Source of the DNA: Bacillota bacterium
GTDB taxonomy: Bacteria > Bacillota_C > Negativicutes > Sporomusales > Sporomusaceae
DNA length: 11,221 bases
Reading direction: 5' to 3'
Assembly (NCBI GenBank): GCA_023441125.1
Contig: JAEZQV010000479.1
Coordinates: 1-11,221, forward strand
Shown here: positions 2,288 through 10,842 of the stretch, one piece after another
Layout of the letters: the number at the start of each line of letters is the position of its first letter
Numbering within the stretch: position 1 is the first letter of the stretch
Position numbers and translations under genes: made by a program
Notes under the pieces: generated by a model
Database searches by the model: none
Told to the model about the DNA's origin: nothing
Seen by the model: only the letters and a program-made list of their open reading frames with translations

Positions 2288-2326
2288 GACGACAATTTGA
2301 TAATAATCAATAGTGAGGTGCTGATT

Positions 2327-3106
2327 ATGCAATTAGAGCGGGCTTTCCTCGTAGTAACTCCTTATGAATCCAGAAGGCTAATCGCCAAAGCGGTTGTCGA
2401 GCTGCCGGAAATCAAGACGGCGCTGGCCGACGGCTGGATTGTTGTGGCTACCGGGAGCACCAACGGCTATGTTGCCGAGGAGCTTCTCGGCGCTCCCCTC
2501 ATTAAGGAAAATTTCATATCGGGGCATATTACCCAGGGTGAGACCTGGAATACCCCGGATAATCCCGATTTTATTTTCCCGATAGTACTGCACAGGGGCG
2601 TACGCCAGAATATGCGGGCCGAAGAGGCGCTGGAGCAATTTTCCGCCCGGGATGTCTTTATCAAAGGGGCCAATGCTGTTGACGGCCAGGGACATGCCGC
2701 GGTGTTTATGGCTCATCAGGCCGGCGGCACGATCGGTGCAGCCTTAGGCACTCTCTATGCCCGCGGGGCCCGGCTGGTAGTGCCGGTGGGACTGGAAAAA
2801 ATGACTGCCAGCGTGACCGCGGCCGCAAAACATAGCGGCAACCGCAGCTATGCCTATTCGACAGGCAGCCCGGTGGGCATGATGCCGCTGGTGAATGCGC
2901 TGGTAGTAACGGAAATTCAGGCCTTGGGCCATCTGTTCGGTGTACAGGCCTACCACCTGGGTTCAGGCGGTATTGCCGGCGCGGAAGGCGCGGTTATCCT
3001 GGCTATAGAAGGCGAAGAGGAGAACGTTAAACAAGCCTTTGCGTTTGTCCAGACCATCAAGGGGGAACAGCCCCTGGGGCGCCCGCACGGTACTCCGAAA
3101 CAGTAG
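2327..3106 (+). CDS. Conserved protein of unknown function (259 aa), possible NagB/RpiA-like fold
   Basis: I do not recognise a named family. Start chosen at ATG 2327: GAGGTG ends six bases upstream, whereas the in-frame TTG at 2297 has no ribosome binding site and lies almost at the promoter start. The product appears soluble and Gly-rich, with no signal peptide. Notable segments are ATGSTNGYVAEELLG (41-55), DVFIKGANAVD (109-119), a Gly-rich GGTIGAALG (133-141), RGARLVVPVGLEK (146-158) and a C-terminal LGSGGIAGAEGAV (211-223). The ATGSTN segment after a hydrophobic strand recalls the GTGST loop of ribose-5-phosphate isomerase A and other NagB/RpiA/CoA-transferase-like proteins, and the GANAVD stretch recalls similar folds. 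This is inference only. It is transcribed alone, between its own promoter and a 3' hairpin. Confidence is high for the gene and low for function. Confidence 0.85.
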   Translation: MQLERAFLVVTPYESRRLIAKAVVELPEIKTALADGWIVVATGSTNGYVAEELLGAPLIKENFISGHITQGETWNTPDNPDFIFPIVLHRGVRQNMRAEEALEQFSARDVFIKGANAVDGQGHAAVFMAHQAGGTIGAALGTLYARGARLVVPVGLEKMTASVTAAAKHSGNRSYAYSTGSPVGMMPLVNALVVTEIQALGHLFGVQAYHLGSGGIAGAEGAVILAIEGEEENVKQAFAFVQTIKGEQPLGRPHGTPKQ

Positions 3107-3265: not shown

Positions 3266-3808
3266 ATGAAAAAATTTGTGTGTACAGTTTGCGGCTATGT
3301 GCATGAAGGCGAGGAAGCGCCGGCTAAATGTCCTGTCTGTAAGGCCGGCAAAGATAAATTTAAGGAAATGACCGGCGCTCTGGCCTGGGCGGATGAACAC
3401 CGCATCGGCATTGCCAAAGGCCTCTCCCCTGAGATTATGGATGGTTTGCGGGCCAACTTTATGGGCGAATGCACCGAAGTCGGCATGTATCTGGCCATGT
3501 CGCGCCAGGCGGACCGGCAGGGGTATCCCGAGGTGGCCGAGGCATATAAACGAATTGCCTTTGAGGAAGCCGAACATGCCGCCAAATTTGCCGAGATTCT
3601 CGGCGAGGTGGTGGCGGCCGATACCAAGGCTAATTTAAGCGCCCGGGTGGAAGCCGAGTATGGCGCCTGTGAAGGGAAAAAGAAGCTGGCTGTCCTGGCT
3701 AAAGAGAATAATCTGGACGCCATTCATGACACGGTGCATGAAATGTGTAAGGATGAAGCCCGCCATGGCTGTGCATTCAAAGGCCTGCTGGACAGATATT
3801 TTAAATAA
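3266..3808 (+). CDS. rbr: Reverse rubrerythrin (rubredoxin domain N-terminal, diiron ferritin-like domain C-terminal)
   Basis: Cytoplasmic non-haem iron peroxidase that reduces hydrogen peroxide with electrons from NAD(P)H via redox partners in anaerobes (family knowledge). It has 180 aa. Residues 1-35 form a rubredoxin-like iron centre with Cys6, Cys9, Cys22 and Cys25 (CTVCGY and CPVC). Residues about 55-180 form a four-helix ferritin-like domain; candidate diiron ligands are Glu68/Glu71, Glu101 and His104 (ExxH), Glu129/Glu131, and Glu164 and His167 (second ExxH). Domain order is inverted relative to classical rubrerythrin, where rubredoxin is C-terminal. AGGAGG at 3254-3259 sits six bases before the ATG. 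It is followed after 14 nt by the DUF1540 gene, and both precede one terminator, so they are probably cotranscribed. No convincing promoter or PerR box was seen in 3191-3265. Confidence 0.93.
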
Positions 3809-3822
3809 GGAGTGAAGTTTAA

Positions 3823-4143
3823 ATGGCAAAAATAGCTTGTGAAGTAACGAATTGTTCGCATAATAAAAGCGGCGAATGCTATGCAAACTGTATTGATATT
3901 GTGGGCAGTTCCGCCCGAGAAAACTTTGATACCGCCTGCGGCGCCTTTTTGAACAAACTGCATTATTCCGAACTGACTAACAATGTGCTGAGCGAGGGGT
4001 CCTGCGATTGTCTGAAATGCAGCGTGGAAACCTGTACATATAACAACAATAAGCTGTGCACGCTGGAGCATATTCAAGTTACCGGTCCGCAGGCCGAGTA
4101 TCACACCCAGACGGCCTGCGCCAGCTTTGAACCGCAACAATAA
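3823..4143 (+). CDS. Tandem DUF1540 Cys-rich protein
   Basis: Small (106 aa) cytoplasmic protein with two DUF1540-type modules; function unknown, metal binding inferred. The core cysteines of module 1 (6, 11, 19, 39) and module 2 (66, 71, 79, 99) have identical spacing: C-x4-C-x7-C-x19-C. Each module also carries an H/Y-N pair after the second Cys (HN 13-14, YN 73-74) and a T-x-C-x-x-F ending (TACGAF and TACASF). Extra cysteines at 23, 61 and 63 fall outside the two motifs. AAGGAG begins one base before the end of the rubrerythrin stop codon and is eight bases or so from ATG 3823. The 14-nt gap and shared terminator make it the second gene of a rubrerythrin operon, suggesting a role in peroxide or metal stress. 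Confidence 0.9.
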   Translation: MAKIACEVTNCSHNKSGECYANCIDIVGSSARENFDTACGAFLNKLHYSELTNNVLSEGSCDCLKCSVETCTYNNNKLCTLEHIQVTGPQAEYHTQTACASFEPQQ

Positions 4144-4386: not shown

Positions 4387-5844
4387 ATGCCGGGAAATTT
4401 CATTGCTGTCTGTGGTTTGCCGGACAATACGGATTTGGTGTTGGAAGCTTTGCCTTGTGGTATCGGCATTATTGATGAGCAGGGCTGTATTATCTATGCA
4501 AATTCAGCGTATGCCAAGCTTACCAATCAGCCGCGGGCGCAAATATACGGACAAAATGTAGCCCGAACCTTACCGGGCGGCAGCAGCATTCACGAACTTT
4601 GTGCCGGACAAAAGACATTTCACTATAACTGCCTGACGCCGGCGGGGGCAATTGTGTCGGCGGATATTGTACCTTTGGCGCTAGGGTGCGCTTTTGGCCG
4701 GGCAGTGCTCATTGTGGCCGACGACCAGGAATTAAAAACAGTAAAGGAACAGTTACAATGGGCAACTGCCAAGGTTGAACATCTGGAGCAAAAGTTAAAA
4801 AAGGTGACAGAATCCGGTTGGCATGTGGGACGGATGCGGATTGAATCGCCGGAAGATAAGCTGATCCGTTCTTTGAAGCCAGGCAGAGCATTTGAAAGAA
4901 TTATCGGTATGAGTCCCAGGATTCTGGAGTTGCTTGCTGTGGCCGACAAAGCGGCCAAGGTGCAATCGACAGTGCTGCTTACCGGTAAAAGCGGTACCGG
5001 CAAAGAATTGGTTGCCGAAGGCATTCATCGGGCCAGTTCCCGGGCGCCGGCGCCGTTTGTCCGTATCAACTGCGCCGCCATCCCGGAGACATTGCTGGAG
5101 AGCGAACTGTTCGGGCACGAAAGAGGCGCCTTTACCGGGGCTGTGAAACGGAAGACGGGGAAGTTTGAACAGGCCGACCAGGGAACTCTATTTCTGGATG
5201 AGATTGGCGAAATGGCGCCCAGCATGCAGACCAAGCTGTTGCGGGTAGTGCAAAACGGCTGCTTGGAACGGATTGGCGGCGAGGAAACCATCCGGGTGGA
5301 TGTAAGGATTATTGCCGCAACCAACCGCAATATCGAGAAGATGGTTCAGGCCGGTCAGTTCCGGGAGGACCTGTACTACCGTTTGAACGTAATTCCGCTG
5401 CATTTACCGCCGCTCAAAGAACGCAAGGAGGATATTCCCCTGCTGGTGAACCATTTTTTGAAGAAATTTAGTCTGGCATTTGGCAAGCCGGTTCAGGGAA
5501 TTAAGAAAGCAGCCATGGATGCGCTGGTATGTTACGACTGGCCGGGCAATGTCCGGGAACTGCAAAATATTATGGAAAGAATGGTGGCCTTGACGGATGG
5601 CACCTGCCTCGAATTGGAGGATGTACCGGCCTGCTGCTACAGCCGGGAGCCATATACGAACGAACCGGACACTCTCTATGGAGCCATCATTCAGGGCGAG
5701 CTGTTTTCGCTGGCTGAATATGAGAAACATATCATTAAAGCGGCTCTGGCCAAACATGGCAGTTATACTGCCGCCGGCAAAGCGCTGGGAATTACTCACA
5801 AGACAGTAGCGGCTAAGGCCCAAAAATACGGTATTGATAAATAA
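4387..5844 (+). CDS. Sigma-54-dependent transcriptional activator (PAS - AAA+ - Fis-type HTH)
   Basis: Bacterial enhancer-binding protein that remodels sigma-54 RNA polymerase by ATP hydrolysis. Start at ATG 4387 (485 aa), eight bases after GGAGGG; the in-frame TTG at 4348 lacks a binding site. An N-terminal PAS-like sensor spans about 12-112, with the typical GIGIID and IIYANSAYAKLT segments. A probable coiled coil lies at about 114-141. The AAA+ core has Walker A GKSGTGKE (200-207), the sigma-54-contacting GAFTGA loop (247-252), Walker B LFLDEI (268-273), and an arginine-finger segment REDLYYR (326-332). The Fis-type helix-turn-helix is at about 446-482. There is no receiver domain, so it is probably a one-component sensor acting through PAS; the ligand is unknown. 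A consensus sigma-54 promoter lies 227 bp downstream in the same direction, making the 6191 membrane gene its likely target. Confidence 0.95.
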   Translation: MPGNFIAVCGLPDNTDLVLEALPCGIGIIDEQGCIIYANSAYAKLTNQPRAQIYGQNVARTLPGGSSIHELCAGQKTFHYNCLTPAGAIVSADIVPLALGCAFGRAVLIVADDQELKTVKEQLQWATAKVEHLEQKLKKVTESGWHVGRMRIESPEDKLIRSLKPGRAFERIIGMSPRILELLAVADKAAKVQSTVLLTGKSGTGKELVAEGIHRASSRAPAPFVRINCAAIPETLLESELFGHERGAFTGAVKRKTGKFEQADQGTLFLDEIGEMAPSMQTKLLRVVQNGCLERIGGEETIRVDVRIIAATNRNIEKMVQAGQFREDLYYRLNVIPLHLPPLKERKEDIPLLVNHFLKKFSLAFGKPVQGIKKAAMDALVCYDWPGNVRELQNIMERMVALTDGTCLELEDVPACCYSREPYTNEPDTLYGAIIQGELFSLAEYEKHIIKAALAKHGSYTAAGKALGITHKTVAAKAQKYGIDK

Positions 5845-5876
5845 AGCCCGCAACAATAAATGGTTGCGGGCTTTAT
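5841..5876 (+). terminator. Rho-independent terminator of the activator gene, containing its stop codon
   Basis: A perfect 14-bp stem: ATAAAGCCCGCAAC (5841-5854) and its exact reverse complement (5863-5876) around an 8-nt loop. The TAA stop (5842-5844) lies inside the left arm. The right arm ends in CTTTAT and a TTTT follows at 5881-5884. It should stop read-through from the activator gene into the sigma-54-controlled gene. Confidence 0.8.
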
Positions 5877-5922
5877 GCCGTTTTCGGCGTTTTCTGCGTG
5901 AACGGACAGTAAGCGGGCCGGA

Positions 5923-5934
5923 TTACGGCCGTAA
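5923..5934. promoter_or_regulatory. 12-bp palindrome, candidate upstream activating sequence
   Basis: TTACGGCCGTAA is a perfect palindrome centred about 170 bp before the expected start of the sigma-54 transcript. Its half-site recurs as CCGTAAC at 5929-5935 and 5972-5978, 43 bp (about four helical turns) apart, and as GTTACG at 6104-6109. Enhancer-binding proteins of this class bind dyads roughly 80-200 bp upstream. Assignment to this activator is inference. Confidence 0.45.
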
Positions 5935-5958
5935 CGGTCAAGCTGCTGCCTGGGCAGT

Positions 5959-5993
5959 GGGTAAAAAGTCTCCGTAACAGGGAATTTTTACCC
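5959..5993. promoter_or_regulatory. Imperfect dyad/hairpin, second enhancer candidate
   Basis: GGGTAAAAA (5959-5967) and TTTTTACCC (5985-5993) are exact reverse complements. After a G-A mismatch a further four pairs (including one G-T) leave a 7-nt loop CGTAACA that carries the recurring CGTAAC half-site. Its centre is about 120 bp upstream of the expected transcription start. No T-run follows, so a terminator role is unlikely. Confidence 0.4.
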
Positions 5994-6070
5994 GGTATCC
6001 TGACAGATAATGCGGCGGTGCCGCCGCCGGGCAGGCCTGTAATTACTGCCCCGGCGATGCTTTGGCAGGA

Positions 6071-6087
6071 TTGGCACAGGATTTGCG
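6071..6087 (+). promoter_or_regulatory. Sigma-54 (RpoN) -24/-12 promoter
   Basis: TTGGCACAGGATTTGCG matches the consensus TGGCAC-N5-TTGC: TGGCAC at 6072-6077, TTGC at 6083-6086, with GG (6073-6074) and GC (6085-6086) separated by the required 10 bases. The start is expected near 6098, giving a leader of about 93 nt before the ATG at 6191. The gene directly upstream encodes a sigma-54 activator, which independently supports this call. Confidence 0.88.
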
Positions 6088-6118
6088 ATAAGTAAGGGCG
6101 GGGGTTACGACTGCTAAG

Positions 6119-6127
6119 AAAGGAGGT
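6119..6127 (+). promoter_or_regulatory. Strong Shine-Dalgarno sequence with no start codon behind it
   Basis: AAAGGAGGT is a full anti-16S match inside the sigma-54 transcript leader, yet no ATG, GTG or TTG lies at normal spacing. The nearest is a GTG at 6150 that would encode only three residues before TGA. It could be a relic, a ribosome standby or pausing site, or part of a leader structure. Confidence 0.5.
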
Positions 6128-6190
6128 ACTTTAAAGCGACAATAGCGGGGTGATCACCTGAGGTTTATAAGAACAGAGGGGGCCGGGTAT

Positions 6191-6961
6191 ATGATTACAA
6201 TCGTTGATGTGGCAGTAGCTTGCGGCAGCGGTGTTTTGGCAGCCTCTATCGGTGCGCTGGGGGCGTTTATAATGTGTGGCGTCCTGGTGGTTGCCAATAT
6301 GCCGGACTTGGCATTCGGACTCTATTTCGGACCGCATGTTTCTTTTGCCGCCGGCGTGGGCGCAGCGGCGTACGCCGGCAGAAAAGGTTTGATCGCCGGC
6401 AATAATATCGCTGTGCCGCTTATTAAGTTCAATGACAGTATGATTTTACTGGTAGGCGGTTTATTCGGAGTTGGCGGTCTGCTGGTACAAAAATTCCTGG
6501 CCGGAATGGGAACTCCTACCGATACGGTGGCTTTGACAGTAGGGCTTTCCGGTATTGTCTCCCGGTTATTGTTCGGCGACCGGAAGATATTTGCCGCCTA
6601 TTCCGTTCCGGCCGCAAACCAGCTCTTTTCACTGATTTTACTCGGATTGGGCGTCGGCCTGCTGGCTGCTTATGCCGGACTGGCAACCCAAAATGTTGCC
6701 CTTGGCTTTGGCATTGCCGCGATTACCCTTATTCTGCCGCTATTTACCGGTGTGGGACCGGCTACGCATCATGTGGCTCTCCCGGCCGCTGTGGCGGCGA
6801 ATGCCACCGGTAATATATGGCTGGGCGCGCTGTTCGGGGTGCTGGGGGCGGTACTTGGCGATTTTATTGGTCAGACAATGAACAAAGGCAACACGCACAT
6901 TGACCCGCCGGCTATTGTTATTGCCATATTAACAACCGTGGTCGTATTATTCTGGCGATAG
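6191..6961 (+). CDS. Polytopic inner-membrane protein of unrecognised family, sigma-54-controlled
   Basis: Very hydrophobic 256-aa protein with about seven to nine predicted membrane spans by eye (for example about 8-36, 49-62, 84-103, 112-128, 140-162, 168-188, 195-205, 209-228, 239-255). GAGGGGG (6176-6182) lies eight bases before the ATG. I do not recognise the family; a small permease or channel is plausible. Candidate functional sites are a Gly-Pro-His segment (GPHVSF, 47-52), GTPTDTVAL (107-115) and GPATHHVAL (189-197), whose resemblance hints at an internal repeat, and Gly-Asp pairs at 129-130 and 223-224. Paired membrane histidines (193-194) could bind a metal or substrate. It is the only gene between the sigma-54 promoter and a bidirectional terminator, so the upstream activator probably exists to control it. 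Gene call strong; function unknown. Confidence 0.87.
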   Translation: MITIVDVAVACGSGVLAASIGALGAFIMCGVLVVANMPDLAFGLYFGPHVSFAAGVGAAAYAGRKGLIAGNNIAVPLIKFNDSMILLVGGLFGVGGLLVQKFLAGMGTPTDTVALTVGLSGIVSRLLFGDRKIFAAYSVPAANQLFSLILLGLGVGLLAAYAGLATQNVALGFGIAAITLILPLFTGVGPATHHVALPAAVAANATGNIWLGALFGVLGAVLGDFIGQTMNKGNTHIDPPAIVIAILTTVVVLFWR

Positions 6962-6986: not shown

Positions 6987-7027
6987 GCAAACAAAATGGC
7001 CGCCCACTCGGCGGTCATTTTGTTTGC
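6987..7027. terminator. Bidirectional terminator between convergent genes
   Basis: Arms 6987-7004 and 7010-7027 form an 18-bp stem with a single G-T pair and a 5-nt loop. The GC core is GGCCGCC / GGCGGTC, and the outer stem is A-rich on the left (AAACAAAA) and T-rich on the right (TTTTGTTT), so it supplies a U-tract in either direction. It lies 25 nt past the membrane gene's stop and 15 nt past the end of the convergent exonuclease gene. Confidence 0.85.
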
Positions 7028-7042
7028 GTCCAGCCATGGGGG

Positions 7043-7795
7043 CTAGAAAATCTCCAGGCCTACCGGACAATGGTCGCTGCCCATAATTTGAGAATAGATG
7101 AGGGCATCTTTTACCGCTGCACGCAGCCGGTTGGAAACAATGAAATAGTCAATACGCCAGCCGATATTCCTGGCTCTGGCATTCATCATATAAGACCACC
7201 AGGTATAGGCATGCTCCTGGTCAGGATACAAAAAGCGGAAGGAATCGGTGTAGCCGGCTGCAAGCAGTACGGTCATCTTACCCCGCTCCTCCTCGGTAAA
7301 GCCGGCATTCTTCCGGTTGCTGGCGGGGTTTTTGATGTCTATTTCCTGATGGGCCACATTCAGGTCACCGCACAGGATGACCGGTTTTGTCTGATCAAGC
7401 CGGGCCAGATAGTTTCTAAAGTCATCTTCCCACTGGCTGCGGTAATTCAGGCGGGTAAGCCCGCGCTGGGAATTGGGGGTGTACACATTTACCAGGTAAA
7501 ACTGGTCATATTCCAGGGTAATGATGCGGCCTTCCTGATCGTGGGCCGCGATATTCATACCGTAGCAAACAGACAGGGGTTTTATTCTGGTAAAAACAGC
7601 CGTACCGGAATACCCTTTTTTTATGGCGCTGTTCCAGTATTGTTCATATCCGTCCAGCACCAGTTCGGACTGCTCTGGCTGCATTTTGGTTTCCTGTACA
7701 CAGAAGATATCGGCCTGCACACTGTGGAAAAAATCGGCAAAGCCCTTGGTAAGGCAAGCTCTCAGCCCGTTTACATTCCATGAAATTAATCGCAT
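7043..7795 (-). CDS. xth: Exodeoxyribonuclease III (AP endonuclease, ExoA/Xth)
   Basis: DNA base-excision repair enzyme: cleaves 5' of abasic sites and removes 3' blocks and 3'-terminal nucleotides with Mg2+. The product is 250 aa, normal for the family. Conserved residues of the exonuclease/endonuclease/phosphatase fold are all present: Asn7 (SWNVNG), Glu35 (QETK), Tyr105 (YTPNS), Asp144 and Asn146 (GDLNV), Asp216 (GWRIDYF), and Asp241-His242 (GSDHCPV). On the minus strand AGAGGGG lies about five bases before the ATG, supporting the start. It runs divergently from the flavoprotein gene and convergently with the membrane gene, and appears monocistronic. An intact, ordinary copy. Confidence 0.96.
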   Translation of the reverse strand: MRLISWNVNGLRACLTKGFADFFHSVQADIFCVQETKMQPEQSELVLDGYEQYWNSAIKKGYSGTAVFTRIKPLSVCYGMNIAAHDQEGRIITLEYDQFYLVNVYTPNSQRGLTRLNYRSQWEDDFRNYLARLDQTKPVILCGDLNVAHQEIDIKNPASNRKNAGFTEEERGKMTVLLAAGYTDSFRFLYPDQEHAYTWWSYMMNARARNIGWRIDYFIVSNRLRAAVKDALIYSQIMGSDHCPVGLEIF

Positions 7796-7816
7796 AATGC
7801 CCCTCTTTCTGGTTAA

Positions 7817-7841
7817 AAATCTGTAGCTATGCTATAGATTT
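7817..7841. promoter_or_regulatory. 11-bp dyad just upstream of exonuclease III
   Basis: AAATCTGTAGC (7817-7827) and GCTATAGATTT (7831-7841) are reverse complements apart from one G-T, around TAT. The centre lies 34 bp before the exonuclease start codon, where the promoter should be, so it may be an operator; alternatively it would form a hairpin in the leader. Confidence 0.4.
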
Positions 7842-7948
7842 CGGCATATGCGGGGCGGTGTCCTGCCTGGCTGCCGGTTATTTGGCCGGACAAGTTGGAC
7901 AGCGGCCGGAAAGTTCGGTAAAAAAACGATCAGCCAGCAGGAATTTCC

Positions 7949-7982
7949 ACTTTCTTGGATAATAAATATTAATAAAGAAAGT
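7949..7982. promoter_or_regulatory. AT-rich dyad upstream of the flavoprotein gene, possible promoter/operator
   Basis: ACTTTCTT (7949-7956) and AAGAAAGT (7975-7982) are exact reverse complements around an AT-rich centre (7957-7974). A weak pair TTTCCA (7944-7949) and TATTAA (7967-7972) at 17 bp would place the dyad over the promoter. The flavoprotein gene starts 29 nt after the dyad. The dyad is certain; the promoter call is weak. Confidence 0.4.
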
Positions 7983-8011
7983 TACTTTAACAGCTGAGGG
8001 GAGGATTTGCC

Positions 8012-9454
8012 ATGTATGATGTTTGCATTATTGGCGCCGGGGTAGTCGGGATGAACATTGCCAGACAACTGTCACGGTACAAGCTGCAAGTCTGTGTGCT
8101 CGAAAAAAATCAGGATGTAAGCTGTGGCTGTTCTAAAGCCAACAGCGGCATTGTCCACGGCGGTTATTCGGACGAGCCGGGAACCCTGAAAGCCGAGTTG
8201 TGCGTCAAGGGCAACCGGATGTATGAGCAGCTCAATAAAGAGTTAAACTTTGGCTATAGACAGACGGGTTCGCTGGTATTGGCTTTCAGTGCGGAAGAAA
8301 TCCATACCCTGCATACGCTTGCCGAATATGGCCGTCACAACGGCGTCGAAGGGCTGGCGGTAATTTCCGGTGAACAGGCGCGGGCGATGGAGCCCTATTT
8401 AAGCAGTGAAGTGGAAGCGGCTTTGTATTGTCCCAACGCCGGGGTCACTTCCCCTTATGAGTTTGTCGTGGCGCTGGCGGAAAATGCCGTTGCCAACGGA
8501 GTGACGCTTAAGCTTGGCAGTGAAGTTACCAAAATTCAGACCGGTGATGCCGGTTTCACGGTTTCCACCAGTCAGGGCGAAAGCCTGACGGCCCGTTATG
8601 TGATCAACGCGGCCGGTATCCATAGCGACCGTGTCGCCCAACTGGCCGGTATTCATGATTACCGCATTACTCCCCGGCGCGGCCAGTACGTGGTGCTGGA
8701 CAAGGAACAGAACTACCTGGTGAAGTCGGTAATTTTCCAGGTTCCGACCAAGCTGGGAAAAGGGATTCTGGTAACCACCACTTACCACGGTAACCTGATG
8801 ATCGGGCCTAATGCCGAGGAGATTGAAGACAAAGAAAATGTGAGCACCGACGATAAAACCCTGGAGTATATTGTGCAGACGGCGCGCAAATCGGTGCCGG
8901 GCTTTACCATGAAAAAGGCGCTCAAATCATTTGCCGGCAACAGACCGGTAGCCAACCGGAAGGACTGGGTTATTGAAGAAAGCAGCGTAAAACGGTTTAT
9001 TAATCTGGTGGGAATTGATTCGCCGGGACTGACCTCTTCGCCGGCCATCGCCTTAAAAGTGATCGGTATTTTGCAGGCCGCCGGGCTGGTACTGGAGCCC
9101 AAGACGGCCTTCGAGCCATACCGCAAGCCTGTTATCCGGCCGAAGGGTGCCGACTTTGACGGCGATAGTAATGCTCCTGAGCCCGAGCGGCATATCATCT
9201 GCCGCTGTGAACAGGTGACCGAGGCTGAAATCATCGACTGTATGCAGCGGGGGATTCCTGTAACCTCGCTGGCGGCCGTAAGCCGGCGTACCCGGGCCGG
9301 AATGGGGAGCTGCCAGGGCGCTTTCTGCGGACCGAGAGTCCGGCAGCTTCTTGCCCGTGAACTTAATATCCCGCCGGTGGAAGTAGGCGACCGGGACGAG
9401 CCGTCTTCCACCTTAGCGCAGCGCGCCAAACGCATGGATATGCTCAAAATGTGA
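8012..9454 (+). CDS. FAD-dependent oxidoreductase, GlpA/LhgO-like, with C-terminal BFD-type [2Fe-2S] domain
   Basis: Flavoprotein dehydrogenase related to anaerobic glycerol-3-phosphate dehydrogenase subunit A and L-2-hydroxyglutarate oxidases; the substrate cannot be set from sequence. It has 480 aa. The dinucleotide-binding GAGVVG (8-13) opens a DAO-type FAD domain with the typical NSGIVHGGY segment (about 47-55). The C-terminal 85 residues form a BFD-like [2Fe-2S] domain with Cys397, Cys399 (CRC), Cys434 and Cys439 (CQGAFC). GGGGAGG sits seven bases before the ATG. In many Firmicutes such a gene is followed by a second FAD/NAD-dependent oxidoreductase and a DUF1667 protein; neither is here, so its redox partner must be elsewhere. 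Divergent from exonuclease III; the downstream phosphoesterase gene is 110 nt away. Confidence 0.9.
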   Translation: MYDVCIIGAGVVGMNIARQLSRYKLQVCVLEKNQDVSCGCSKANSGIVHGGYSDEPGTLKAELCVKGNRMYEQLNKELNFGYRQTGSLVLAFSAEEIHTLHTLAEYGRHNGVEGLAVISGEQARAMEPYLSSEVEAALYCPNAGVTSPYEFVVALAENAVANGVTLKLGSEVTKIQTGDAGFTVSTSQGESLTARYVINAAGIHSDRVAQLAGIHDYRITPRRGQYVVLDKEQNYLVKSVIFQVPTKLGKGILVTTTYHGNLMIGPNAEEIEDKENVSTDDKTLEYIVQTARKSVPGFTMKKALKSFAGNRPVANRKDWVIEESSVKRFINLVGIDSPGLTSSPAIALKVIGILQAAGLVLEPKTAFEPYRKPVIRPKGADFDGDSNAPEPERHIICRCEQVTEAEIIDCMQRGIPVTSLAAVSRRTRAGMGSCQGAFCGPRVRQLLARELNIPPVEVGDRDEPSSTLAQRAKRMDMLKM

Positions 9455-9564: not shown

Positions 9565-10842
9565 ATGCCCACCCACAATTTGTTGCCTGGTCAAAACCAT
9601 AAAGTGTACTGGGGGGCCGTCAGCTTGGTTGTTGGCGGCCTTTTGGCCTATGTACTGCTGCTGTATCCGGGTACGGCCGTACTTCCCCGTTATCTTACCC
9701 TGACCTGGACGGATGAGCCTGCGACCACGCAGACAATAACCTGGCAGGCCGGCGCCCTGCTTACGGGCGGACAGCAAGTGGAGTATTGGGAGCAGACTGC
9801 CGACGGAGTTTTGTCCGGGCCGGGACAGATTGTCAGAGCGAAACGGGAAACGCTGCGCACCAACCGGGGGCAACTGGCCGTTTATTCCGCCAGACTGACC
9901 GGGCTAAAGCCCGGCACACGCTATATTTACCGGGTGGGAAACGGTTTTATTCAAAGCCGGCCACACAGTTTTGTCACCGCCGCAGCAGATGCAGAGCGAT
10001 TTAAGTTCTTGCTGTTCGGCGACTCGCAGGGCAGCAAGTATGATGATTGGCAGGCCACTTTGACCGGAGCCCGGCAGGCTCAGCCCGACGCCGCTTTTAT
10101 GGTTCACGCCGGTGATCTGGTGGATGTGGGGCTGGATTATGGGCAATGGCAGGACTGGTTCAGCGCCGGTGCAGGCATTATCGACAGCGTTCCGGTTATG
10201 CCGGTGATGGGCAACCATGAGACCTACACGCCGGACTGGCAGATAGCCAGGCCGGAATATTATGCGGGGCTGTTTAAACTGCCGGCCAACGGCCCGCAGG
10301 CGCTTACCGGCAAAGTGTATTCTTTTGATTATGGTCAGGTGCACTTTAGCGTTCTCGACAGCCAGGTGCAGGAAGAACGGGAGTTTATTCCCGACATACT
10401 AACGCTGCAGCAGACCTGGCTGGAGCAGGACCTGCGCGCCACGGCTAAGAAGTGGAAACTGGTCTTTATTCACCGCCCGCTTTATCATAACCGGCCTTCG
10501 CCGGGGGATGAGGATCTGCAGGCTGCCTTTGCTCCCATCCTTGACCAATATCATGTTGACGCCGTTTTCGCCGGGCATGACCACATCTATGCCCGGTCTT
10601 ATCCTATCCGGGGCGGGGTGTGGAACAACAGCCAGGCGGGGCAGGGGACCGTGTATATTACGACCGGCCGCAGCGGCGTCAGGACCTTTGCCCGGGCCGT
10701 GGCCAAGGACTGGGACGCGGTATATTACAATCCCCTGGACCAGCCGGTCTACCTGACCGTGGCGGTTGCTCCGGCCAGTTTGACGGTGCGCGCTTTTAAG
10801 CAAAACGGCGACAGCATTGATGTCTGGCGCCTAACCAAGTAA
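9565..10842 (+). CDS. Membrane-anchored metallophosphoesterase, purple-acid-phosphatase-like
   Basis: Predicted phosphomonoesterase or phosphodiesterase acting outside the cytoplasm; substrate unknown. It has 425 aa. A membrane span at about 15-35 acts as signal anchor. A fibronectin-like purple acid phosphatase N-terminal domain spans about 40-138. The calcineurin-type catalytic domain spans about 145-350, with metal ligands Asp153 (GDSQ), Asp184 (GDLVD), Asn217-His218 (GNHET), His303 (FIHRP), and His338 and His340 (GHDH). The Tyr of the purple acid phosphatase GDxxY motif is Asp187 here, so the enzyme should lack the Fe(III)-tyrosinate of true purple enzymes. A beta-rich tail closes the protein (about 393-425). 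GGAGG is seven bases before the ATG. No phosphate-regulon neighbour is present. Confidence 0.9.
   Translation: MPTHNLLPGQNHKVYWGAVSLVVGGLLAYVLLLYPGTAVLPRYLTLTWTDEPATTQTITWQAGALLTGGQQVEYWEQTADGVLSGPGQIVRAKRETLRTNRGQLAVYSARLTGLKPGTRYIYRVGNGFIQSRPHSFVTAAADAERFKFLLFGDSQGSKYDDWQATLTGARQAQPDAAFMVHAGDLVDVGLDYGQWQDWFSAGAGIIDSVPVMPVMGNHETYTPDWQIARPEYYAGLFKLPANGPQALTGKVYSFDYGQVHFSVLDSQVQEEREFIPDILTLQQTWLEQDLRATAKKWKLVFIHRPLYHNRPSPGDEDLQAAFAPILDQYHVDAVFAGHDHIYARSYPIRGGVWNNSQAGQGTVYITTGRSGVRTFARAVAKDWDAVYYNPLDQPVYLTVAVAPASLTVRAFKQNGDSIDVWRLTK

What the first reader, a model, noticed from the sequence alone, without database searches (positions are those of the whole stretch)
4387..6961. Self-contained sigma-54 module: PAS activator, enhancer-like region, consensus promoter and one orphan membrane protein
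Seen: an enhancer-binding protein with intact GAFTGA, Walker and Fis motifs, a 14-bp terminator, a -24/-12 promoter with exact GG-N10-GC spacing, and then a single multi-span membrane gene ending at a strong terminator. Inference: the activator is dedicated to this membrane protein, so a cytoplasmic signal read by PAS switches on an uncharacterised transporter or channel. A regulated gene that costs its own activator suggests a conditional substrate, but no metabolic neighbour identifies it.
Basis: partly seen in the sequence, partly recalled or inferred. Interest (0 to 1): 0.7.

Follow-up and report, generated by a model that had tools for sequence, protein, structure and literature searches.

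The report
Activator-controlled candidate polyol uptake channel
A bacterial gene for a membrane protein of unknown function, placed behind its own activator, probably makes a channel that lets glycerol or a similar small alcohol into the cell; the same family sits beside glycerol kinase in most of the salt-loving archaea examined, where the usual uptake protein is mostly missing.

Summary
The anatomy is real: an intact PAS-AAA+-Fis sigma-54 activator (4387-5844), a near-consensus -24/-12 promoter (6072-6087) and one 256-aa membrane gene (6191-6961). The reading of it as an uncharacterised orphan without metabolic neighbours does not hold.

The membrane protein belongs to DUF7973. Its relatives mostly lack this activator (0 of 80 loci) but share a theme: 27 of 80 loci carry microcompartment-operon markers and 17 others glycerol kinase. 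In Halobacteria, 100 of 103 genomes with DUF7973 carry it directly downstream of glpK; the known facilitator family (MIP/GlpF) takes that place at three other glpK genes and never shares it. In the class of Anaerospora, 21 of 50 diol-dehydratase loci have MIP nearby, 5 DUF7973, none both, 24 neither. A relative of the activator (L112) has the same layout in front of two DUF6905 membrane genes, a family NCBI names 'putative glycerol transporter subunit'; two more distant ones precede dhaK. A second activator/promoter/DUF7973 unit occurs in L097.

Best reading: a non-aquaporin facilitator for small polyols under its own sigma-54 switch. Transport is untested. A suggestion of a glycerol role for the haloarchaeal neighbour of glpK is already in print (PMC5496347).

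The parts
4387..5844 (+). PAS-AAA+-Fis sigma-54 activator (485 aa)
5842..5875 (+). inverted repeat after the activator, possible terminator (T tail weak)
5959..5993 (.). GGGTAAAAA-N17-TTTTTACCC, candidate activator-binding site about 80 nt upstream of the -24 element
   Evidence: 3% of resamples contain such a repeat
6072..6087 (+). -24/-12 sigma-54 promoter TGGCACAGGATTTGCG
6191..6961 (+). DUF7973 membrane protein (256 aa), candidate small-polyol facilitator
6987..7027 (.). inverted repeat between the convergent DUF7973 and xth genes, probable terminator
   Evidence: and the sequence
8012..9454 (+). GlpA-like FAD oxidoreductase with a BFD [2Fe-2S] domain, in the neighbourhood but not in the same transcript (xth on the other strand lies between)
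   Evidence: under the NCBIfam cut-offs

Best explanation
The membrane protein is a facilitator (channel or uniporter) for glycerol and/or 1,2-propanediol and similar small neutral polyols, and it is not of the aquaporin (MIP/GlpF/PduF) sequence family. The upstream gene encodes a cytoplasmic PAS-sensing activator related to ones that precede a putative glycerol transporter (DUF6905) or dhaK. On its signal it binds upstream of 6072 and opens the sigma-54 promoter, so the facilitator is made when the polyol, or a metabolic state linked to it, is sensed. Shown: gene anatomy, promoter match, family membership, association of the family with polyol genes, and replacement of GlpF at glpK in Halobacteria. 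Inferred: transport, substrate, and that this activator acts at this promoter.
For: 145 Halobacteria genomes: GlpK in 118, DUF7973 in 103, both in 102; in 100 DUF7973 starts within 300 bp downstream of glpK on the same strand. MIP is in 7 and takes that place at 3 glpK genes (G399, G453 and one of two copies in G462, whose other copy has DUF7973), never together with DUF7973 (Fisher 1e-16 for co-occurrence, kinship not corrected). 80 loci: 27 with microcompartment-operon markers (shell proteins, EutN, PduO or PduL), 17 with GlpK at 40% identity or more, 2 more with a glycyl-radical enzyme, 9 more with FGGY kinase, iron alcohol dehydrogenase, DhaK, DeoC or GlpA. Of 10 FGGY kinases scanned, 7 pass the NCBIfam GlpK subfamily cut-off and one fragment has GlpK as best match. 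Class of Anaerospora: of 50 diol-dehydratase loci, 21 have MIP within 16 kb, 5 DUF7973, 0 both, 24 neither; G011 has one pdu locus of each kind. The four closest relatives whose loci were fetched (56-65%) all lie in pdu/BMC operons. Activator: in L115 a 56% relative is followed by an inverted repeat, a 19.3/20.3 sigma-54 site and two DUF6905 genes, named by NCBI 'Lin0368 family putative glycerol transporter subunit'; another relative, P0140 (61%), and a DUF6905 protein, P0243, share contig length and source (20251, lgn). L117 and L118 activators, with 14 and 13 of 16 residues of the recognition helix identical, precede a sigma-54 site and dhaK. In L097 an activator closest to the DhaR profile, a 19.8/20.3 site and DUF7973 stand in a row. 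The two halves of DUF7973 appear homologous (hhalign probability 78.5%, P 1.7e-5).
Against: No transport assay exists. 25 of 80 loci have none of the markers; 20 of the 131 neighbours listed there were scanned and were mixed, some housekeeping. 16 of 118 GlpK-bearing Halobacteria genomes lack DUF7973, and 13 of these have no MIP either, so other routes exist; PMC11962113 (passages) points to MFS transporters. 19 of 120 Halobacteria DUF7973 genes are not directly downstream of a detected glpK. In the class of Anaerospora 6 of 9 DUF7973 genomes also have MIP elsewhere, and exclusion at pdu loci alone is weak (p 0.056). One of four activator relatives examined (L113/L116) has no such target. The dhaK-linked activators are outside the window activator's 34-row group in the tree. 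The activator was found near 0 of 80 homologues. The GlpA neighbour was compared only with the fetched DUF7973 loci. A site as good as the promoter is not rare in 11 kb (7.5%).
Confidence: 0.72

Rival explanations
1. DUF7973 is not a transporter but a membrane partner or anchor for polyol enzymes, for example of glycerol kinase or glycerol-3-phosphate dehydrogenase.
For: Directly downstream of glpK in 100 of 103 Halobacteria genomes with the gene; a membrane-anchoring partner of a GlpA-like enzyme is reported in Sulfolobus (PMC11962113, abstract and passages).
Against: It also occurs in pdu/BMC operons, in L097 and in kinase/aldolase operons without GlpA. MIP takes its exact place at 3 glpK genes. 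The activator's relative in L115 faces another membrane family named as a putative glycerol transporter.
Confidence: 0.12
2. DUF7973 moves a different small metabolite of these pathways (an aldehyde, acetate, acetoin or another product), as importer or exporter.
Against: The glycerol kinase pathway makes no free aldehyde or acetate directly, and the family that it replaces at glpK, MIP, carries polyols and water (established knowledge).
Confidence: 0.1
3. The activator controls a distant operon and its place before DUF7973 is incidental; DUF7973 is expressed otherwise.
For: Most DUF7973 genes have no such activator beside them; some relatives of the activator precede dhaK instead.
Against: A near-consensus -24/-12 site and an inverted repeat at enhancer distance lie between the genes; the pair seems kept in two relatives; L115 repeats the layout with DUF6905.
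Confidence: 0.1

Closest known systems
GlpF / PduF (MIP, aquaglyceroporins)
   Same: Same genomic place: directly after glpK in Halobacteria, near diol dehydratase in pdu loci
   Different: No Pfam match to MIP, no NPA motif; no confident structural match
DUF7973 (PF25928), probably including the Haloquadratum membrane protein HQ1732A beside glpK (PMC5496347)
   Same: Family label of the window protein and of the best 120 listed homologues; [quoted passage not shown]
   Different: The window member stands alone under its own sigma-54 activator. Whether HQ1732A is DUF7973 was not checked by sequence, and the paper calls it upstream of glpK, whereas the copies counted here are downstream
DUF6905 (Lin0368 family putative glycerol transporter subunit)
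   Same: Small membrane protein behind a relative of the same activator and a sigma-54 promoter (L115)
   Different: About 110 aa, in tandem copies; no sequence relation to DUF7973 was tested; the function in its name is putative
DhaR / AcoR-type sigma-54 activators
   Same: Sensory PAS, AAA+ with GAFTGA, Fis HTH; recognition helix much like that of activators preceding dhaK
   Different: No GAF or HPr domain in the window protein; far under the DhaR cut-off; apparent target is a membrane gene
Urea transporters (UT-B) and Rh/Amt channels

Membership tests
sigma-54 activators (bEBP) | AAA+ Sigma54_activat domain with Walker A/B and GAFTGA | tested here: met
sigma-54 activators (bEBP) | Fis-type HTH at the C terminus | tested here: met
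sigma-54 activators (bEBP) | activates a sigma-54 promoter in vivo | not testable with these tools
   needs transcript mapping with and without rpoN
DhaR (NCBIfam equivalog NF008485) | score over the curated cut-off of 551 bits | tested here: not met
   241.9 bits
DUF7973 (PF25928) | Pfam label on the identical public protein | tested here: met
   P0001, 100% identical over 100%; the model is absent from the library here
MIP (aquaporins, GlpF, PduF) | PF00230 match | tested here: not met
   no Pfam family at E 0.01
MIP (aquaporins, GlpF, PduF) | NPA motif (recalled) | tested here: not met
   absent
MIP (aquaporins, GlpF, PduF) | aquaporin fold | tested here: inconclusive
   aquaporins only at E about 1 and TM about 0.2
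urea transporter | UT fold | tested here: inconclusive
glycerol/polyol facilitator (function) | raises permeability to glycerol or propanediol | not testable with these tools
   genomic context only

The most novel reading that the evidence does not exclude
DUF7973 is an unrecognised class of polyol channel, unrelated to aquaglyceroporins, that is the missing glycerol facilitator of most haloarchaea and an alternative GlpF/PduF in bacterial glycerol and microcompartment operons; in this lineage it stands outside the pdu operon under a dedicated sigma-54 switch whose kin drive another putative glycerol transporter (DUF6905) or dhaK.
Probability: 0.6. Interest if true: 0.8.

Novelty: new variant of a known kind. 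Interest (0 to 1): 0.65.

Why it matters
[quoted passage not shown] Here 112 of 118 GlpK-bearing Halobacteria genomes have no MIP match, while 102 have DUF7973. One family filling that gap, and standing near diol dehydratase where other genomes have MIP, would give a function to a widespread unknown family and a second solution to polyol permeation to set beside aquaglyceroporins. One deletion and one permeability assay would test it.

Tried and rejected
Pfam and NCBIfam scans of the membrane protein gave nothing; PF25928 is not in the library here, so I used alignments. Foldseek against the PDB gave no match at E 0.001; the urea transporter and Rh/Amt rows are a hint only, and families missing from that list are not excluded. 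Genome-wide exclusion of MIP by DUF7973 was rejected for the class of Anaerospora (6 of 9 have both). In one search the genomes of 40 of the 80 loci, chosen for their polyol contexts, were searched for MIP: 11 of 14 with true GlpK at the locus lack it, against 9 of 26 others (p 0.019); three further GlpK loci (L019, L039, L073) were not searched. The FGGY kinases of L033 and L068 were first counted as GlpK and removed. Gene calls in GC-rich loci were poor, so the counts quoted are tblastn counts. A shared operator with the dhaK promoters was looked for: GGTAAAA/TTTTACC pairs occur in the window and at L118 (left half inside the activator gene) but not before dhaK in L117; left open.

L115 beside the L112 activator is not an unrelated context: it holds a sigma-54 site and two DUF6905 genes. 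The dhaK-linked activators are not the nearest kin. DUF6905 is in only 1 of 28 genomes of the order of Anaerospora.

Papers: searches. Seen as passages: PMC11962113, PMC3863723 (names HVO_1542 once, as glpK), PMC5496347, PMC4207490; PMC12366361 and PMC12853182 were searched for uptake terms without a hit. No paper was read whole.

Rows dropped: five fragmentary MIP rows (G005:C51 twice, G014:C92, G012:C58, G011:C50:89363), none on a contig with a diol dehydratase locus, and two dehydratase rows under the cut-off (G062; G058:C3). The 300 genomes include G001 and G002, which were already known to carry DUF7973.
Full report
What is in the sequence. The activator, promoter and membrane gene are present as described. 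The activator runs from ATG 4387 to stop 5844 with PAS, sigma-54 AAA+ and Fis HTH domains and GKSGTGKE, GAFTGA and LFLDEIGE stretches. TGGCACAGGATTTGCG at 6072-6087 is the best sigma-54 match in the window: 19.0 of 20.3 on a recalled weighting, reached by 0.2% of resamples of the intergenic stretch and 7.5% of whole-window resamples. Upstream lies one 9-bp inverted repeat, GGGTAAAAA-N17-TTTTTACCC (5959-5993), a kind present in 3% of resamples. The membrane gene (6191-6961) gives a confident all-helical model (pLDDT 96.4).

Where the family lives. Eighty loci were fetched from genome contigs (222 relatives were confirmed and the best 80 kept). By tblastn, 27 have microcompartment-operon markers, 17 have glycerol kinase at 40% identity or more, none has both, 2 more have a glycyl-radical enzyme, 9 more have another polyol-type marker (two of these only an iron alcohol dehydrogenase) and 25 have none. 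Operons include DUF7973-glpK-glpA-(FAD reductase)-DUF1667 (L003, L004), glpP-glpK-DUF7973-glpA-(FAD reductase)-DUF1667 (L013, L024) and DUF7973-glpK (L030, L032). The window activator has no relative within the fetched flanks in any of the 80.

Halobacteria. In 145 genomes of the class of the Halonotius genome (class name recalled), MIP is in 7, DUF7973 in 103 and GlpK in 118. 102 genomes have GlpK and DUF7973, 16 GlpK alone, 1 DUF7973 alone, 26 neither. In 100 genomes DUF7973 is directly downstream of glpK on the same strand. MIP takes that place at three glpK genes, never with DUF7973 at the same one; G462 has one glpK of each kind. Against: 19 of 120 DUF7973 genes are not directly downstream of a detected glpK. 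Of the 16 GlpK-only genomes, two have MIP at glpK and one (G386) elsewhere, leaving 13 with neither. Two genomes with DUF7973 at glpK also have a MIP elsewhere (G355, G411).

Class of Anaerospora. 9 of 300 genomes have DUF7973. In five it lies 3.5-10.5 kb from diol dehydratase (G001, G002, G011, G023, G035). In one, G052, a truncated copy lies at a contig end near alcohol dehydrogenase and cobalamin-type genes; in two, G036 and G053, it ends a kinase/aldolase/dehydrogenase operon (labels by eye, except the FGGY kinase). In one, G018, it is in the L097 operon. Of 50 diol-dehydratase loci, 21 have MIP within 16 kb, 5 DUF7973, 0 both, 24 neither; within 35 kb 25, 5, 0 and 20 (hypergeometric 0.056 and 0.025). 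The closest relatives with fetched loci (56-65%) are all in the pdu group.

The activator. The window protein groups with P0121 and P0122; an 11-row sister group includes P0133. P0122 and P0133 share contig length and source with DUF7973 proteins P0003 and P0002. P0004 (73%) showed no such match among the 120 of 317 activators listed. Four relatives were examined in their genomes. L112 (56%, inside the window's 34-row group) is followed in L115 by an inverted repeat, a sigma-54 site scoring 19.3 and two DUF6905 genes; NCBI names several DUF6905 proteins 'Lin0368 family putative glycerol transporter subunit', a name that says what they are annotated as, not tested. P0140 (61%), in the same group, shares contig length and source with a DUF6905 protein, P0243. 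L113 (in L116) has neither such genes nor a strong site. L117 and L118, in a mostly HPr-bearing group outside the 34 rows, precede sigma-54 sites (18.5 and 20.3) and dhaK; their recognition helices match the window's at 14 and 13 of 16 positions. So three of four examined contexts concern glycerol or dihydroxyacetone. The window activator is far under the DhaR cut-off.

The same layout elsewhere. In L097 an activator closest to the DhaR profile (433 bits, under its cut-off of 551) is followed by TGGCACAGGAATTGCA (19.8) and a distant DUF7973, then dehydrogenases resembling butanediol/acetoin and polyol enzymes and a TPP-dependent dehydrogenase; the substrate there is inferred. In L095 a PrpR-like activator follows DUF7973, with no strong site between them.

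Neighbour in the window. The gene at 8012-9454 is GlpA-like with a BFD domain; its best NCBIfam match, a type 2 glycerol-3-phosphate oxidase, is under the cut-off (356 of 460 bits). It is 40-43% identical over about 470 residues to GlpA of DUF7973-glpK loci, but only the 80 fetched loci were compared, so this is supporting, not decisive. It is not co-transcribed.

Conclusion. The family-level case for polyol uptake is strong but circumstantial. The window member is most likely a glycerol or propanediol facilitator under a sigma-54 switch. Its protein kin are pdu-linked, while the activator's kin and the GlpA neighbour point to glycerol, so the substrate cannot be settled. [quoted passage not shown] The link to microcompartment operons, the replacement counts and the activator-controlled form did not appear in the searches made, which cover one open-access library.

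Noticed in passing
L115:6714-7705 (-) and the activator at 7740-9245 (-): A relative of the window activator faces two tandem DUF6905 genes (named putative glycerol transporter subunit by NCBI) behind a strong sigma-54 site; DUF6905 is in 1 of 28 genomes of the order.
   Followed up: partly
L096 (genome G023), DUF7973 gene at about 8134-8900: The DUF7973 reading frame is broken near its C terminus in this pdu operon (two pieces).
   Followed up: no
genome G011, contigs C46 and C71: Two pdu loci in one genome, one with two neighbouring MIP genes and one with DUF7973.
   Followed up: partly
L095:4400-6325 (-): A PrpR-like sigma-54 activator, then two large genes of transporter-like look (by eye), follow DUF7973 in a pdu locus.
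   Followed up: partly
L109 and L110: DUF7973 ends an operon with a regulator, an alcohol dehydrogenase, an FGGY kinase, a DeoC-like aldolase and a small protein that looks (recalled) like a glucitol PTS B domain.
   Followed up: no
window 2297-3106 (+): A 269-aa protein with no Pfam or NCBIfam match at E 0.01.
   Followed up: no
window 3266-4143 (+): A rubrerythrin-like gene followed by a DUF1540 gene with two matched stretches, possibly one transcript.
   Followed up: no
window 9565-10842 (+): A purple-acid-phosphatase-like metallophosphoesterase with an N-terminal hydrophobic stretch.
   Followed up: no
L029, L061, L034, L047, L078, L020, L025: DUF7973 copies without any of the polyol markers in the fetched flanks; their role is open.
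   Followed up: partly
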